From the NCBI RefSeq assembly GCF_008831545.1, contig NZ_CP044523.1, positions 3,472,001 to 3,536,000 on the forward strand: DNA of 64,000 nt, in the 5' to 3' direction. The stretch's first letter is position 1. Each line of letters opens with the position of its first letter. Shown one piece after another: positions 9,100-59,892 of the stretch. Made by a program: the position numbers and the translations under genes. The notes under the pieces were generated by a model, which was not told where the DNA came from, ran no database searches, and worked only from the letters and a program-made list of their open reading frames with translations. The stretch is from Halorussus halophilus (GTDB taxonomy: Archaea; Halobacteriota; Halobacteria; Halobacteriales; Haladaptataceae).

Positions 9100-9657
9100 T
9101 CACACCATCACCTGTACCACCAAGAATAGCACCAGCACACCCAGCACGTCGCAGATGTTCGTCACGACCGGTATCACCACGTCGTCGGGGTCCAACTCGA
9201 ACCGGTATGCGGCGTAGGTCGCCACGAGCGTCACACCAATCGCTACCACTGCCAGCGCCGCACCGCTCGCGAGTGCGACCACCACGACAGTGCCGAGCGG
9301 CAACTGCACACCACCGAGAACGAGTGTCACCGCCCACGCGCCAGCGCCGACGACTGGAAAGACAGTCAGTGCCAGCGCGACCGTCGCTACGGCGTTGCCA
9401 GCCAACTCGTCGTCCCTCGGGTCGAACGAGAGCGTGCCGAGGTGGAACGCCGTCGAGAGGCGCGCGGCCAGCACGCTCCCCAAATTCCCGGCGGTGCCGA
9501 TGATGACCGGCACGAGCGTGAGCAGGGCCGGATACTTGAGCAGTGTCGCCTCGAAACTGCCCAAGACGAGACCGGACAGAATCTCCACGACGGTCAGCGC
9601 GAGCAGGACTGGCAACATCGCTCGCGTGATGGCTCGAATCGTCCACTCCGTCTGCAT
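9100..9657 (-). CDS. MgtE-type magnesium transporter membrane half, second gene
   Basis: A 185-residue protein of about five transmembrane helices matching the MgtE/SLC41 integral membrane domain. It has VPVIIGTAGNLGSVLAARLS, the conserved loop with Gly-Asn that lines the ion pore, and DPDDVVIPVVTNICDVLG, carrying the acidic Mg site. The N-terminal cytosolic and CBS domains of bacterial MgtE are absent. Its ATG directly abuts the stop codon of the upstream half gene, so the two are co-translated and presumably form a heterodimer. Mg or another divalent cation is the likely substrate. Confidence 0.85.
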   Translation of the reverse strand: MQTEWTIRAITRAMLPVLLALTVVEILSGLVLGSFEATLLKYPALLTLVPVIIGTAGNLGSVLAARLSTAFHLGTLSFDPRDDELAGNAVATVALALTVFPVVGAGAWAVTLVLGGVQLPLGTVVVVALASGAALAVVAIGVTLVATYAAYRFELDPDDVVIPVVTNICDVLGVLVLFLVVQVMV

Positions 9658-10239
9658 CTACCCACCTCCGAGGCCGATTCGAAGGACGAATCTGACCGCC
9701 AGCAGGAGAAACGAGATACCGAACACGTCGCCGGTCGTCGTCACCAGCGGGCCGACCAGCGTGTCTGGGTTGTGCCCGCGCGAGAATCCCGCGAAGACGA
9801 CCGACACGACGGCGACGGTCAGCGCACCACCGGACAGCACGCCAGCGACGAGTGCGATGGCGAGGAGCGTCGTAAGCGACGCGACAGGCTCACCGAGAAT
9901 CGAGAGGACCAGAAACGCGACTACGGCGGCGAAACAACTCGCCAGCACACCGTTGCCGAGTGCCGCCAGCACCGCGGCGCGGACTCGGTCGTCCGGCATC
10001 CACTCGGGTTCGACCAGCCCCTGGTGGAGACCCGTGGAGAGTCGCGCGCCGAGCGACCCGTAGACGTTGCCGCGCGTGGCGAGCAATGCGGGCACGAGGA
10101 CAAGCAGTCCGGGGACTGCGCGCAACTCCGCCCGCATGCCGCCCAGCACCGCACCCGCGAACAGGCCCCCGACGACGCTCGTGGCGAGCGCCGGGAGGGC
10201 TTCGCGGTAGGCCTGCCGAGCGACGTCGCGGACTGACAT
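9658..10239 (-). CDS. MgtE-type magnesium transporter membrane half, first gene
   Basis: A 193-residue membrane protein, paralogous to the downstream gene. It has LVLVPALLATRGNVYGSLG as the pore-loop motif (RGN in place of GGN/AGN) and HNPDTLVGPLVTTTGDVFG as the acidic ion-binding helix. About five helices are predicted. No CBS domains are present. Together with the adjoining gene it would rebuild the ten-helix pore made by a homodimer of bacterial MgtE. It is read first in the pair. Confidence 0.85.
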   Translation of the reverse strand: MSVRDVARQAYREALPALATSVVGGLFAGAVLGGMRAELRAVPGLLVLVPALLATRGNVYGSLGARLSTGLHQGLVEPEWMPDDRVRAAVLAALGNGVLASCFAAVVAFLVLSILGEPVASLTTLLAIALVAGVLSGGALTVAVVSVVFAGFSRGHNPDTLVGPLVTTTGDVFGISFLLLAVRFVLRIGLGGG

Positions 10240-10312
10240 CTATCGGGAAATGGCGACCTGCATTCAAAAAACCGGTGTGTGGCGACTGGAGTCCGGTTTA
10301 CTCCAAAACGTC

Positions 10313-11263
10313 CTATTCGAACTGCTCGATAAGCTCAGGCACCACTTCGAACAGGTCGCCGACGATACCGTAGTCGGCGATGTCGAAGATAGGCGCGTTC
10401 GGGTCGGTGTTGATGGCGATAATCGTGTCCGAACCCTTCATGCCAGCGACGTGCTGGACCGCGCCGGAGATACCGATGGCGAGGTACACGTCGGGCGTGA
10501 CGACCTTGCCGGACTGGCCGACCTGCCGGTTCTTCGGCAACCAACCGTTGTCCACGATGGGGCGCGACGAGGAGAGCGTCGCGTCCGTCGCTTCCACGAG
10601 GTCCTCGATGAGCGGCAGGTTCTCCTCTTCCTCGATACCGCGGCCGATGGAAATCAGGAATTCTGCGTCGCTGATGTCCACGTCGCCGCCACCGACCTCT
10701 TCGAAACCGGTGACTCTCGACCCAGTGTCCGTGTCGATGTCGGCTTCGAACTCCGAAATCTCGGCATCGCCGACGCCCTCTGCGGCAGACCACTCCGCGC
10801 CGCGGATGGTGACGGCCTGCTGGTCGCCGCCGACTTCGACGGTCGTCTCGACCTTCGAACCGTACATCTCGCGGGTGACGGTGAGGCTGTCGCCGTACTC
10901 GATGCCGACGGCGTCGGTCGCCAGCGGCAGGTCGAGGCGGTTCGCCACGGCGGGCGCGTAGTCGAGGCCGTTGACGCTGTTAGGCATCAGGACGACCTCG
11001 GGGTCGAGTTCGGCGTGCAGGGCTTCGATGGCCTGCGTGTACACGTCGTGGTTGAACTCCTCGCCCTCGCTGACGGTGTGGACGTAATCGACGCCCTCGC
11101 GGTTCAGGTCGTCCGCGAAGCCAGTAGCATTGCCGCTGATGACGGCGAGATGCAGGTCGCCGCCGCTCTCGTCGGCGAGTTGTCGCCCGGCGGTGATGAC
11201 CTCGTAGCTCACGTCGCGCAGGTCGCCACGGCGGTGTTCGGTGATGGCGAGTACGTCCGTCAT
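10313..11263 (-). CDS. etfA: Electron transfer flavoprotein, alpha subunit
   Basis: A 316-residue EtfA/FixB protein. The N-terminal half (MTDVLAITEHRRGD) is the ETF domain shared with beta. The C-terminal half is the FAD-binding domain, with the signature VYLAIGISGAVQHVAGMKGS followed by IIAINTDPNAPIFDIADYG. It carries FAD and passes electrons from acyl-CoA dehydrogenases or similar enzymes to the quinone pool. It overlaps the upstream beta gene by 4 bases. No ETF:quinone oxidoreductase (FixC/FixX) genes are adjacent. Confidence 0.95.
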   Translation of the reverse strand: MTDVLAITEHRRGDLRDVSYEVITAGRQLADESGGDLHLAVISGNATGFADDLNREGVDYVHTVSEGEEFNHDVYTQAIEALHAELDPEVVLMPNSVNGLDYAPAVANRLDLPLATDAVGIEYGDSLTVTREMYGSKVETTVEVGGDQQAVTIRGAEWSAAEGVGDAEISEFEADIDTDTGSRVTGFEEVGGGDVDISDAEFLISIGRGIEEEENLPLIEDLVEATDATLSSSRPIVDNGWLPKNRQVGQSGKVVTPDVYLAIGISGAVQHVAGMKGSDTIIAINTDPNAPIFDIADYGIVGDLFEVVPELIEQFE

Positions 11264-53854: not shown

Positions 53855-54484
53855 TTAGCTACAGCAGGCTCCACAGCAACCTTCGTCCGACCAGGCCGTA
53901 CAATCGGTTCCGTCGCCGTAGTTCGTACAGCACGTCCGCTCTTGGTAGACGCAGGAGTTGAGGTCACAGGGGTCGCACGTACAGCGCGATTCGGTGACGC
54001 AGGCCTCCGTCGTCACCTCGCCACCCTCGTCGCGGACGGTGATGGGGTCGGCGTCGGCCAGCGGTTTCGCGGAGGCGTAGCTCTCGCCGAGTTGCGGATG
54101 CACGACGACGGTGACTTCGTGAGTCTCGGTTTCGACGCTCGCTTTCACCTCTGCCGTCGCCCGCTCGTCTTTGTAGAGACTCATCACGCTCGCGTCCTTC
54201 GCGTCGGTACCGACCGCCGAGAAGTCGAACGCGTCGGCCCCGCGGGCGTCGAGATAGCCTCGGTCTGCGAGTTCCGCGAGGACCGTGTCCGCGTGTTCGG
54301 CGACGGCCCACTGGGCACGAACCGAGTCGCTGTACGCCGCCTCGACGTGATTCATTTCGCTCGTCGGCACCGTCGCGCTCACTGACCCTGTCGCGGCGAG
54401 ACCGGCTGCTGCACTCGCCCCGACTGTCTTCAGCATCGACCGGCGGTCGAACGTCTTTTCGTGGGTCTTGTTATCCTTCGACAT
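53855..54484 (-). CDS. Tat-exported cysteine-rich peptide precursor (halocin-like)
   Basis: A 209-residue protein. The N-terminus has a twin-arginine motif DRRSMLKTVG (Arg 14 and 15) and an Ala-rich h-region, a classical Tat signal. Residues 40-157 form a pro-domain without cysteine. The last 52 residues contain 12 cysteines (162, 168, 170, 173, 178, 185, 186, 195, 203, 204, 207, 208) with three CC pairs, ending CCGACCS. This layout resembles halocin C8-type precursors, in which the C-terminal Cys-rich part is released as an antimicrobial peptide. No close family is proven. The 61 bases upstream are markedly AT-rich. Confidence 0.7.
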   Translation of the reverse strand: MSKDNKTHEKTFDRRSMLKTVGASAAAGLAATGSVSATVPTSEMNHVEAAYSDSVRAQWAVAEHADTVLAELADRGYLDARGADAFDFSAVGTDAKDASVMSLYKDERATAEVKASVETETHEVTVVVHPQLGESYASAKPLADADPITVRDEGGEVTTEACVTESRCTCDPCDLNSCVYQERTCCTNYGDGTDCTAWSDEGCCGACCS

Positions 54485-54545
54485 ACATAGATACGGACGA
54501 ACTAAGAATTAATTAAATTTACTACTAGATAACTAGGTTAGAAAT
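54485..54545. other. AT-rich leader upstream of the cysteine-rich precursor
   Basis: Sixty bases including AATTAATTAAATTT are much richer in A and T than the surroundings. It contains TATA-like words and probably the promoter, but also looks like DNA of different origin. Confidence 0.5.
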
Positions 54546-54921: not shown

Positions 54922-55041
54922 CCTTTCACCCGGTGACTCTCTGACGACGTCGTCGGAGAAAGAGTTTGTCGCCGAAGTCTGGCGCGAAACCCCGAATACC
55001 GCCACAAGGGTTTTCGCCGAAATCGACGTACTGTGACGGTC

Positions 55042-55494
55042 ATGCCAGAAACTCGGTCCACGTCTACCGACTGGGGAATCGCGCTCGTCCGACTCGCGCT
55101 CGGCGTCATCTTCGTGGTCCACGGTGTCGGCAAACTGTTCGGTCTCGGGCCGACTGCGACCGGTCTCGACGGCTTCGCCGGGTTTCTCGGCGGGTTGGGC
55201 GTCCCACTCCCCGAACTCGCCGCAGTCGGCGTCGCACTGGTCGAGACGGTCGGTGGTCTGTTCGTCCTCGCAGGGTTGCTGACCAGATACGCCGCCGCGC
55301 TGATTGCGGTCGATATGCTGGTGGCGACAATTCTCGTTCACTTCCCGCAGGGTTTCGCCGTCTCGAACGGCGGCTACGAGTTCACGCTGACACTGTTTCT
55401 TGTCGCGCTCGCGTTGGTCTTTCTGGGTTCCGGCGCGCTTTCGGTGGACAGGGCTGTCCTCGGCCGTGGACGGACCGTTCCGACAGTCGGATGA
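55042..55494 (+). CDS. DoxX family membrane protein
   Basis: A 150-residue protein starting MPETRSTSTDWGIALVRLAL, with four transmembrane helices. Typical DoxX features are ALGVIFVVHGVGKLFGLG in helix 1 and ALVETVGGLFVLAGLLTRYAA in helix 2-3. HFPQGFAVSNGGYEFTLTL is the conserved loop before helix 4. DoxX relates to the small subunit of thiosulfate:quinone oxidoreductase; most haloarchaeal members have no assigned substrate. A GTG three codons upstream is an alternative start. Confidence 0.88.
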   Translation: MPETRSTSTDWGIALVRLALGVIFVVHGVGKLFGLGPTATGLDGFAGFLGGLGVPLPELAAVGVALVETVGGLFVLAGLLTRYAAALIAVDMLVATILVHFPQGFAVSNGGYEFTLTLFLVALALVFLGSGALSVDRAVLGRGRTVPTVG

Positions 55495-56730: not shown

Positions 56731-57552
56731 TCAGTTACCCGTCCACTTCAGTAGGAACAGGGTACTCTCGAACAGGGCGACCATCGTAATCGTGACGATG
56801 ATGGGTGCCATCCCGGTCGGGTCGGGCGTGAAGAGGAACGAGATGCCCAAGAACGCGCCCCAGAACAGGAGTCGTCTGTCCGCGAGCCACTGACGGGTGG
56901 TCAGTCCCATCATGATGGCGAGCATGATGAACAGCGGAATCTGGAAGACGACGGCGAGGTAGCCCATCAGCATCAAGATGAGGTTGAACGTCTTCGTCAG
57001 GCCGAACGCGAGGATGGCCACGTCTTTCGTGTAGTAGACGAAGTACGTGAAAATCGCCGGAAGGACGAGGAAGTACGCGAAGCTCACGCCGATGAACGCG
57101 AGGACGAGACTCGTCGGGACCGCCGCGAGGTAGTATTTACGCTCGTTGGGGTACAGTCCCGGACGCATGAACAGATACGTCTGATAGACGAAGAACGGAA
57201 GCGCGACGATGACGCCCGCGAGGCTCGCAACCTTTAGCTTCGTCAGCACGAGCGCGAGCGGGTGGTAGATTTTCGGTCGAGCCTCCTGCCCGAGTTGTTC
57301 GAGCGGGATGACTTGGTACCACAGGAAGTTGATAATCTCCTCGGAGAACGGCAGGGCAATCGCGGTGATGCCTCCCGCTACGACGACGACCACTGCCAGC
57401 CGCTTGATCATCTCCTCGATGTGGTCGGCCAACGGCATCTCCTCGTCCTGAATCGGGTCCTCCGGCGTCGCTGGCTCGGGGTCCCGCAACGACTCCGGCG
57501 TCTCGTTGGCAGGCGAGATGTTGCTGGCCGTCGCCTCCGATTCGTCAGCCAT
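56731..57552 (-). CDS. tatC: Twin-arginine translocase subunit TatC
   Basis: A 273-residue TatC with a halophilic acidic N-terminal extension of about 40 residues. Six helices follow. The TatC signature segments are MPLADHIEEMIKRLAVVVV (cytoplasmic N-domain, here HIEEMIKR for the usual HLEELR), YQTYLFMRPGLYPNERKY (the first cytosolic loop), and KTFNLILMLMGYLAVVFQIP. TatC binds the twin-arginine signal peptide. Haloarchaea use Tat for most secretion and typically carry TatCo and TatCt. The gene diverges from tatCt by 93 bases. Confidence 0.93.
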   Translation of the reverse strand: MADESEATASNISPANETPESLRDPEPATPEDPIQDEEMPLADHIEEMIKRLAVVVVVAGGITAIALPFSEEIINFLWYQVIPLEQLGQEARPKIYHPLALVLTKLKVASLAGVIVALPFFVYQTYLFMRPGLYPNERKYYLAAVPTSLVLAFIGVSFAYFLVLPAIFTYFVYYTKDVAILAFGLTKTFNLILMLMGYLAVVFQIPLFIMLAIMMGLTTRQWLADRRLLFWGAFLGISFLFTPDPTGMAPIIVTITMVALFESTLFLLKWTGN

Positions 57553-57645: not shown

Positions 57646-59892
57646 ATGTCTGGAGGAAGTAGCATCGTCGACGAGGACACCGCTCGCGCCGTCAATAGCG
57701 GCCGTGAAACTGTCGGCGCGATGCTTTCGACGGCTCAGGACCACTTACGGAAAGTTTTCATCGTCTTCCTACTCGGTTTCTTGGGGTCGTTCTACGCACT
57801 GCGCATCGCTATCTGGCCGTTTCTCAAGGAAGTCACCCGGTCCCAGATGTCCGCAAGAATCGCGGGCGACGTGCAGTTCATCGCGGTGACTCCCTTCGAC
57901 GTCATCCTCTTACAGGCGAAGATCGGGGCTATCTTCGGCATCATCATCGCGCTTCCAGTGCTTCTGTACTACGCACGCGACTCGTTCCGCCAACGCTCGT
58001 GGTACCCAGAACACGGCGTTCCGCTGTGGAAGCTCTTCTTGATAGGACTGCTCGGGTTCGCGCTCTTCTTCGGTGGCATCCTCTACGGCTACGGGGTCTT
58101 CTTCCCCATCATGTTCGACTTCCTCGCCGGAAACGCCATCAACGCGGGGCTCGAACCGAGGTACTCCATCGTCAAGTGGACGGAGTTCATCGCGTTCCTC
58201 TCGCTGTCGTTCGGACTCGCGGCCGAACTCCCGCTCGCTATGAGCGGTCTCGCGTACACGGGCATCGTCCCGTACGAGACGTTCCGCGACAAGTGGCGAT
58301 ACGCCGTCGTCGGTATCTTCGCCTTCGGCGCAATCGCGTCGCCGCCGGACCCGTTCACCCAAATCATGTGGGCTGCGCCGCTCGTCCTCTTGTACGCGTT
58401 TAGCCTCTATCTGACGAAGATAGTCGTCACGCTGAAGCGCGGTAGCGAGCGCCTGAGTTTCTTCGGCGTGATTCGTGACAACGGGATTCGAACCATCGGT
58501 TCCGCCGCGTTCGTCTTCCTCGCAGTTCGGATGTTCTTCGCGGAGTTCGGTCTCACGTACTTCAACACCTCTCTCCCGGCGAAGTGGCAACTCCTGCCCA
58601 TCTCGGAGTGGACTGGAATGCCGCGAACGCAGTCCATCAACCTCGTCGCTGGCGGGTTCGCGTTCGTCGCCTTCGTCGTGGCGTTCCTCTACTACCTGAC
58701 GCAGGCACTGAACGAGATTTCGGTCGAATCTGCCGCCCCCCCGACTGCGGGCGCTCCGGCCGACATCGACATCGAGACCCTCGACGCTGGCGCGGTTCGG
58801 GCCGCACCGCCCGAAGCGTTCACCGACATGACCGAGGAAGAAGCCGTCGGCCACGCTCGCGAAGCGATGGAGGCCGACGACGCCGCGAAGGCCCAAGCAA
58901 TCCTCGACCGGTACGACGAACTCCACCCCGACGAGGACGAAGAGGCGGAGGGCGAAGCGGCAGGAGACGACGGTGAGGGTGGCGACGGCGAAGGCGGTGA
59001 GGGTGGCGAAGAGGCCACCTTCCCGCGGGAACCCGAGCGACCCGACCGCTCGGACAACGTCGTCCAGAGTACGGCCGCGGGCATGGCCGACGCCTTCACC
59101 GAGGACGAGACCACCGAGGACGACATCGGCGGGTGGTTCTACGACATCCGGTTCATCTTCGAGAGTCTCACCTCGAAGATGTTCCGCATCGTCGCGGTGT
59201 TCATGGCCGTCCTCGCCGGGACGTTCTACTTCCTCTACTCCGGCGGTATCGGTGACATCAAGGAGGATTTCCTCCAGCGACTGCCCGCAGCGGTGCGCCC
59301 CGAGACCGGTTCGTCCCAGCAGGTTCTGGACATCGTCACGCTTCACCCCGTCGAGGCGCTCGTCTTCGAGGTCAAGATTTCGACCCTACTCGGTGCGGTG
59401 GCGGTCCTCCCGCTCATCACCTACTACGCGTGGCCCGCGCTGAAGGAGCGCGGACTGGCGAGCGGCAACCGCAACGTGTTCGTCCTGTGGGCTGGGACGC
59501 TCACGGTCGGTCTCGTCGCCGGGAGCGCCATCGGCTACGCGTACGTCGCCCCGGAGATTATCTCTTATCTCGTCGCCGACGCTCGGCGGGCGGAGATGAT
59601 TATCTCCTACCGGGTCAGCAACTTCTTCTGGCTCGTGTTCTTCACGACGGCGGGTATCGGCCTGCTCGCGGACATTCCGCTGTCGATGGTGCTGTTCGAA
59701 CGCGGCGGCATCGTCTCGTTCGACGCCATGAAGGACCGCTGGCGCGAGGTCACCATCGCCGTCTTCGCCGTCGCCGGACTCGCCACGCCCGACAGCCTCT
59801 ACACGATGTTCCTGCTCGCCATCCCGCTCTCGCTGGCGTACCTGCTCGGGTTGGGCATCCTGTGGGTGATTACGCTCGGCGGTAGGTGGTAG
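57646..59892 (+). CDS. tatCt: Double-length TatC fusion, TatCt
   Basis: A 748-residue protein containing two TatC-like domains. The first (about 35-355) has QDHLRKVFIVFLLGFLGSFY and YYARDSFRQRSWYPEHGVPL; the second (about 490-748) has TSKMFRIVAVFMAVLAG and ITYYAWPALKERGLA. An acidic linker of over 100 residues rich in Glu, Asp and Gly joins them. TatCt is reported only in haloarchaea, with 14 predicted helices and an essential role in Haloferax. It shares a divergent promoter region with tatC. Confidence 0.95.
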   Translation: MSGGSSIVDEDTARAVNSGRETVGAMLSTAQDHLRKVFIVFLLGFLGSFYALRIAIWPFLKEVTRSQMSARIAGDVQFIAVTPFDVILLQAKIGAIFGIIIALPVLLYYARDSFRQRSWYPEHGVPLWKLFLIGLLGFALFFGGILYGYGVFFPIMFDFLAGNAINAGLEPRYSIVKWTEFIAFLSLSFGLAAELPLAMSGLAYTGIVPYETFRDKWRYAVVGIFAFGAIASPPDPFTQIMWAAPLVLLYAFSLYLTKIVVTLKRGSERLSFFGVIRDNGIRTIGSAAFVFLAVRMFFAEFGLTYFNTSLPAKWQLLPISEWTGMPRTQSINLVAGGFAFVAFVVAFLYYLTQALNEISVESAAPPTAGAPADIDIETLDAGAVRAAPPEAFTDMTEEEAVGHAREAMEADDAAKAQAILDRYDELHPDEDEEAEGEAAGDDGEGGDGEGGEGGEEATFPREPERPDRSDNVVQSTAAGMADAFTEDETTEDDIGGWFYDIRFIFESLTSKMFRIVAVFMAVLAGTFYFLYSGGIGDIKEDFLQRLPAAVRPETGSSQQVLDIVTLHPVEALVFEVKISTLLGAVAVLPLITYYAWPALKERGLASGNRNVFVLWAGTLTVGLVAGSAIGYAYVAPEIISYLVADARRAEMIISYRVSNFFWLVFFTTAGIGLLADIPLSMVLFERGGIVSFDAMKDRWREVTIAVFAVAGLATPDSLYTMFLLAIPLSLAYLLGLGILWVITLGGRW

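What the first reader, a model, noticed from the sequence alone, without database searches (positions are those of the whole stretch)
53855..54484. Candidate antimicrobial peptide precursor: Tat signal, cysteine-free pro-domain, 12-Cys tail
Twelve cysteines are packed into the last 47 residues, with three CC pairs, in a proteome normally poor in cysteine. Tat signal plus pro-domain plus Cys-rich C-terminus is the plan of halocin C8, whose precursor also carries its immunity part at the N-terminus. The AT-rich upstream stretch suggests recent arrival.
Basis: partly seen in the sequence, partly recalled or inferred. Interest (0 to 1): 0.65.

Follow-up and report, generated by a model that had tools for sequence, protein, structure and literature searches.

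The report
Secreted cysteine-rich peptide precursor, new family
This salt-loving archaeon carries an unnamed gene family whose members are shipped out of the cell carrying a small tail densely packed with paired cysteines, built like known archaeal antibiotic peptides but unrelated to them, and one branch of the family sits beside enzymes of the kind that attach lipids to a terminal tryptophan.

Summary
A 209-aa ORF on the minus strand (53855-54484) has a Tat signal, a Cys-free middle domain and 12 Cys in its last 48 residues, with three CC pairs. It belongs to a large family missing from Pfam and NCBIfam: 62 collected members share the middle domain, 61 of 62 have an even Cys count, and 17 of 86 sampled haloarchaeal genera have it. 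Even counts point to disulfides rather than metal storage. It is not halocin C8 by family model, and it is not a recent arrival: orthologues lie at the same locus in five congeners, codon use is native, and the AT-rich stretch is a promoter with a CTAG-N4-CTAG box. Elsewhere, seven loci pair members ending in C-terminal Trp with a PalQ/ComQ-like isoprenoid synthase (Fisher p about 1e-7), several lie beside HExxH lipoproteins, and the promoter box also precedes other Tat/Cys-rich peptides and an M23 peptidoglycan hydrolase. Best reading: precursor of a secreted disulfide-rich bioactive peptide, halocin-like in plan only. Its activity is untested.

The parts
53855..54484 (-). CDS, 209 aa, Tat-exported Cys-rich-tail precursor (stop codon 53855-53857)
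   Evidence: translation; homologues in 18 of 28 genomes of its family; protein-level conservation
54368..54484 (-). Tat signal region, residues 1-39 (DRRSMLK)
   Evidence: sequence; RR invariant in 24 relatives; sub-threshold TAT_signal matches
54002..54367 (-). Cys-free middle (pro-) domain, residues 40-161: three helices then beta-strands; family motif VxPxxxxSYAxxxP
   Evidence: AlphaFold model, mean pLDDT 90; middle-domain-only HMM matches 38 further members, E 5e-6 to 3e-32 at Z=1e5
53999..54019 (-). Junction motif EVTTEAC (V-x-T/P-x-x-C), candidate processing site
   Evidence: related motif in 35 of 62 members against 19% background; VTP before the first Cys also in the short Tat/Cys-rich peptides. 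Cleavage itself not shown
53858..54001 (-). 12-Cys tail, residues 162-209
   Evidence: sequence; even Cys count in 61 of 62 members; tail dN 0.16 vs middle-domain dN 0.38 against the closest orthologue
54525..54536 (-). CTAG-N4-CTAG operator-like box
   Evidence: with the TATA-like spacing it is the only site in the 4.45-Mb genome; conserved upstream of orthologues and of paralogues at another locus
54512..54517 (-). TATA-like TTTAAT about 28 nt upstream of the ATG (fits a leaderless transcript)
   Evidence: sequence; AT-content peak at -35 to -26 across 62 members and almost no Shine-Dalgarno

Best explanation
The gene encodes the precursor of a secreted, disulfide-cross-linked mini-protein. 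The Tat system exports it folded. The middle domain serves as folding scaffold or leader for the 48-residue tail. An extracellular or membrane protease then separates them near the EVTT/AC junction, and the tail (six predicted disulfides) acts outside the cell as a bioactive peptide. The most likely action is antagonism of neighbours (halocin-like in function); peptide signalling is the main alternative. Shown here: the family, the even Cys rule, the conserved promoter and locus, and slower change of the tail than of the middle domain in the more distant orthologue pairs. Inferred: disulfide formation, cleavage, site of action and activity.
For: Tat signal and tail confirmed. The family is defined by the middle domain alone. 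Even Cys count in 45 of 47 non-redundant tails, p=8e-12; the two exceptions are one member with its eighth Cys in the middle domain and one true odd case. Tail dN 0.16 vs middle 0.38 (window vs G024) and 0.08 vs 0.19 (G013 vs G012). Relatives sit beside an isoprenoid-synthase-fold gene with ComQ/PalQ-type motifs at 7 loci, all with members ending in Trp; beside HExxH lipoproteins in four genomes (0.13 adjacent pairs expected among the genomes and five observed); and once beside an ABC ATPase/permease pair. The CTAG-N4-CTAG promoter also precedes four other short Tat/Cys-rich peptides and one Tat M23 peptidoglycan hydrolase-like protein, a kind shown to kill bacteria (PMC12352652). Proteolytic release of a C-terminal active fragment is established for halocins C8 and H4 (PMC12893001).
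Against: The window gene itself stands alone, with no modifying, immunity or transport gene recognised beside it. The AlphaFold model runs one long strand (protein residues 156-172) across the proposed cleavage site, so tail and middle domain may stay one unit. Within orthologues the tail is constrained, not fast-changing as expected of an arms-race toxin. The M23 and ABC links are single cases. No activity, processing or disulfide data exist.
Confidence: 0.55

Rival explanations
1. Secreted signalling peptide (pheromone): the tail, in some relatives prenylated, is sensed by the same or related cells.
For: C-terminal-Trp members pair with a ComQ/PalQ-like enzyme, and ComX/ComQ is a pheromone system (PMC10853753). 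Constraint on tails among orthologues suits a ligand that matches a receptor.
Against: No histidine kinase recognised by eye beside the seven enzyme-linked loci; no receptor identified; the window member lacks a C-terminal Trp and its genome lacks the enzyme.
Confidence: 0.2
2. Uncleaved secreted or surface protein whose Cys-rich tail is a disulfide-stabilised part of one beta-rich domain (adhesion, cell-envelope or inhibitor role).
For: AlphaFold models tail and middle domain as one beta structure with good confidence; each tail is conserved among orthologues.
Against: Tails differ strongly between paralogues while the middle domain stays recognisable; the C-terminal-Trp/enzyme branch and the HExxH neighbours fit peptide maturation better.
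Confidence: 0.2
3. Secreted metal-binding (metallothionein-like) protein.
For: High Cys density and CxC/CC motifs.
Against: No Pfam or NCBIfam metal-storage match. Even-only Cys counts are not required for metal binding. An exported location in an oxidising medium favours disulfides (general knowledge).
Confidence: 0.05

Closest known systems
Halocin C8 (ProC8/HalI-HalC8; NCBIfam TIGR04449)
   Same: Haloarchaeal, Tat-exported precursor; N-terminal domain followed by a C-terminal mature peptide (PMC11509114), Cys-rich as recalled
   Different: No match to TIGR04449 in the protein, in 24 relatives or in the genome; tail 48 aa with 12 Cys against 76 aa; no evidence of an immunity role for the N-terminal domain
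PalX/PalQ and ComX/ComQ (Trp-prenylated RiPPs of Bacillota)
   Same: In one branch, precursors end in Trp (often GW) next to an isoprenoid-synthase-fold enzyme with intact FARM and an invariant Q...D in place of the SARM; PalQ needs a C-terminal Trp and prefers GW (PMC13290415, PMC10853753)
   Different: Archaeal, Tat signal, disulfide-rich tail, unrelated precursor domain; no adjacent kinase recognised; the window member has neither C-terminal Trp nor the enzyme
Halocin H4 / halolysin HlyR4 activation
   Same: Secreted haloarchaeal precursor with an active C-terminal fragment released by an extracellular protease (PMC12893001)
   Different: No sequence link tested; the protease for this family is unknown
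Archaeal lanthipeptides (archalans)
   Same: Cys-containing haloarchaeal peptides, common in Halorussus (PMC12144867)
   Different: Those are short precursors modified by LanM; no such enzyme recognised beside this gene, and even Cys counts suggest disulfides

Membership tests
Halocin C8 family | Match to the halocin C8 domain model TIGR04449 | tested here: not met
   No match at E<=1, none in 24 relatives, none in the genome while Haloferax volcanii rings
Halocin C8 family | Tat-exported precursor with Cys-rich C-terminal peptide | tested here: met
   By sequence only:
Halocin C8 family | N-terminal part confers immunity | not testable with these tools
   needs expression in a sensitive strain
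Halocin C8 family | Antimicrobial activity of the mature C-terminal peptide | not testable with these tools
   needs purified peptide
This haloarchaeal Tat/Cys-tail family (new) | Homologous middle domain independent of Tat signal and Cys tail | tested here: met
   HMM of the middle domain alone, which includes the window protein, finds 38 further members
This haloarchaeal Tat/Cys-tail family (new) | Even number of tail Cys | tested here: met
   12 in the window protein; 60 of 62 by tail count, 61 of 62 when the middle-domain Cys of one member is included
PalX/ComX-type Trp-prenylated RiPP | C-terminal Trp and adjacent ComQ/PalQ-like enzyme | tested here: not met
   Window tail ends CCGACCS; no enzyme in its genome at E<=1e-8. 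Met at seven other loci of the family
PalX/ComX-type Trp-prenylated RiPP | Prenyl group on Trp | not testable with these tools
   needs mass spectrometry
Lanthipeptide | Adjacent LanM/LanB/LanC | tested here: inconclusive
   none recognised by eye among the neighbours; the whole genome was not searched
Metallothionein / metal-storage proteins | Match to a metal-storage family model | tested here: not met
   No Pfam or NCBIfam match

The most novel reading that the evidence does not exclude
Haloarchaea possess a broad, co-regulated repertoire of Tat-exported, disulfide-rich peptides built on several unnamed precursor types. One branch has its C-terminal Trp prenylated by an archaeal PalQ/ComQ-like enzyme, which would be a tryptophan-prenylated peptide system in Archaea. 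The window gene is a core, syntenically conserved member of the repertoire, though not of the prenylated branch.
Probability: 0.4. Interest if true: 0.8.

Novelty: new variant of a known kind. Interest (0 to 1): 0.62.

Why it matters
Only a few halocins are known at gene level, so archaeal peptide weapons and signals are hard to find by homology. This family gives a sequence rule (Tat + middle domain + even Cys tail, CTAG-N4-CTAG promoter in its genus, VxT/P-C junction) that exposes dozens of candidates in haloarchaeal genomes. Its Trp-ending branch makes a concrete, testable prediction of tryptophan prenylation in Archaea.

Tried and rejected
Close-relative scans of genome contigs and viral contigs and a plasmid tblastn with the window protein found nothing; relatives appeared only with the genome search. 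Foldseek and VIA-align 2 of the window model against the PDB gave no convincing match (best E 0.93; best Z 5.2). A single SsgA Pfam hit (E 0.001 in one of 24 members) was taken as chance. 'Recent arrival' was rejected on synteny and GC3. No histidine kinase was recognised by eye at the Trp/enzyme loci. An alignment-based genome-contig search with the whole family failed for lack of conserved stretches. Of the ten complete enzyme genes, three (G096, G197, G248) have no adjacent member in the stretches fetched. Literature searches found no description of this family in the open papers held; subscription papers were not searched.

Full report
OBSERVATION. The gene is on the minus strand, 54484 to 53855, 209 aa. 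It has an N-terminal twin-arginine signal, no Cys in residues 1-161, and 12 Cys in residues 162-208 with CC pairs at 185, 203 and 207. The chance of so many Cys at the local frequency is about 2e-14. Pfam and NCBIfam give only sub-threshold Tat-signal matches.

A FAMILY, NOT A SINGLETON. A search of 28 genomes of its taxonomic family found relatives in 18. An alignment of 24 members shows the same plan in all: Tat signal, middle domain with an invariant Pro and the motif VQPExxxAYAxVEP, and a Cys-rich tail. With the Tat part removed from the query, the profile finds members in 36 of 391 sampled genomes and 17 of 86 genera of the class (E<=1e-6). A profile of the middle domain alone, without Tat signal or tail, matches the 38 members not used to build it (E 5e-6 to 3e-32 at Z=1e5). 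The own genome has three members. None of the 24 aligned members matches a curated functional family.

DISULFIDES. Tail Cys counts run from 6 to 22. They are even in 60 of 62 members, and in 45 of 47 members left after removing similar tails (binomial p = 8e-12). One of the two exceptions has its eighth Cys in the middle domain, leaving one true odd case. Related sequences are not independent trials, but the parity rule holds across very different tails. An even-only rule is expected for disulfides; metal binding, lanthionines or sactionines do not need it. Disulfides themselves were not measured.

CONSERVATION AND AGE. The gene lies between a MutS-like gene and a LarE-like/TatC gene block in the window, and its relatives do so in G024, G013, G012, G026 and G021 (the neighbour names are my reading of the sequences). 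GC3 (0.79) equals that of its neighbours (0.75-0.85). So it is not a recent arrival. Against its closest orthologue the tail has dN 0.16 and the middle domain 0.38; for G013/G012 the values are 0.08 and 0.19. In two closer pairs the gap is small (0.028 vs 0.037 and 0.037 vs 0.060). Synonymous sites are near saturation in the distant pairs, so only dN is compared. Within an orthologue group the tail is therefore at least as constrained as the middle domain; between paralogues the tails differ greatly.

PROMOTER. The AT-rich stretch holds a TATA-like TTTAAT about 28 nt before the ATG, with a CTAG-N4-CTAG box just upstream. CTAG occurs upstream of 25 of 62 members, against 10.2 expected from shuffles and 10 of 98 AT-rich control upstream regions. 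CTAG-N4-CTAG plus TATA-like spacing occurs once in the own genome, at this gene. Across 28 genomes about 18 sites were found, against 11 for the reversed control pattern. Seven precede members of this family (one of them, in G026, frameshifted after the Tat signal). Four precede short (100-126 aa) Tat proteins with Cys-rich tails of a different precursor type. One precedes a Tat-signal protein with a strong M23 peptidase match (E=4e-25) and a weak SH3 match, whose best NCBIfam match is a peptidoglycan hydrolase model, below that model's own cut-off. Archaeal M23 enzymes can kill bacteria (PMC12352652). The M23 case is a single instance.

NEIGHBOURS OF RELATIVES. (a) At seven loci in six genomes (G107 twice, G078, G208, G260, G263, G352) a member lies within about 250 bp of a gene of the isoprenoid-synthase fold. 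The AlphaFold model of that protein has mean pLDDT 89, and its top Foldseek matches are polyprenyl diphosphate synthases at E about 4e-6. Its alignment keeps the first Asp-rich motif (EY[YF]DIxDDxxDxD) and replaces the second with an invariant Q-x3-D-x2-Q. Tryptophan prenyltransferases of the ComQ/PalQ type keep the first motif, alter the second and share a Gln just upstream of it; PalQ requires a C-terminal Trp and works better with Gly before it (PMC13290415, PMC10853753). At all seven loci a member ends in Trp (GWW, PGW, SNW, CGW, GGW, VGW, DGW). Eight of nine enzyme-adjacent members end in Trp, against 2 of 53 others (Fisher p about 1e-7). With one enzyme as query, 195 genomes held only four copies, three of them beside a Trp-ending member. 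G260 appears to be Haloarchaeobius iranensis (contig of identical length). The window genome has no such enzyme. (b) HExxH lipoproteins lie next to members in G035 (three genes), G022, G025 and G355. Among the genomes, 0.13 adjacent pairs were expected and five observed. The same lipoproteins also occur without members nearby. (c) One 16-Cys member (G250) is followed about 15 bp later by an ABC ATPase and a permease.

STRUCTURE. The window protein without its Tat part is modelled with mean pLDDT 90 as three helices followed by beta-strands that continue into the tail; the last 20 residues are less certain. A strand crosses the proposed junction. This suits either a folding scaffold cleaved afterwards or an uncleaved domain.

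MECHANISM. My preferred reading is Tat export of a folded precursor, with the middle domain as scaffold, release of the disulfide-rich tail near V-x-T/P-x-x-C, and activity outside the cell. The plan parallels halocin C8 and the protease-activated halocin H4 (PMC11509114, PMC12893001). Antagonism is favoured by the shared promoter with a peptidoglycan hydrolase and by the ABC pair. Signalling is favoured by the ComX-like branch and by tail conservation. The data do not decide between them.

MEMBERSHIP. It works like halocin C8 in plan, but it is not a member by TIGR04449, which finds nothing in this genome while it rings in Haloferax volcanii. It is not a ComX/PalX-type peptide itself. The family is, as far as the libraries and open papers held here show, undescribed.

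Noticed in passing
L148:3739-5396, L149:3458-5041, L154:3361-5181, L167:3157-4788, L120:7100-9295, L126:6061-7829, L127:5631-8996: Relatives ending in C-terminal Trp lie next to a ComQ/PalQ-like isoprenoid-synthase-fold gene: candidate Trp-prenylated peptides in Archaea.
   Followed up: partly
L227-L234; L194, L196, L199, L204: A second, unrelated-looking set of short (85-126 aa) Tat proteins with Cys-rich tails, one to four copies at one conserved chromosomal spot in the genus, often with the junction LVTPxxxC; neighbours look like CitE, MaoC and glutamate dehydrogenase genes (read by eye).
   Followed up: partly
L202:1563-2309 (+), genome G011: Tat-signal M23 peptidase (weak SH3 match) behind the same CTAG-N4-CTAG promoter; best NCBIfam match is a peptidoglycan hydrolase model, below its cut-off.
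   Followed up: partly
L119:5727-6962 and 9554-10774, L124:6078-7361, L151:2838-4088, L153:3634-4887: HExxH lipoproteins (those scanned have no Pfam match) adjacent to family members; candidate processing peptidases. Two homologues exist in the window's genome at other places.
   Followed up: partly
L123:7210-9598: A 16-Cys member followed about 15 bp later by an ABC ATPase and a membrane permease, as in bacteriocin self-protection or export operons.
   Followed up: no
L200 (G026:C1 near 157446): The orthologue of the window gene in G026 is frameshifted just after the Tat signal while its tail remains intact in another frame (pseudogene or sequencing error).
   Followed up: no
   Followed up: no
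window 56731-57552 (-) and 57646-59892 (+): Two genes that look like TatC (one a double-length fusion) lie 2-5 kb from this Tat substrate; probably coincidence of a conserved gene order.
   Followed up: no
window 55033-55494 (+): DoxX family membrane protein (Pfam E 1e-21) close to the gene, with no clear link.
   Followed up: no
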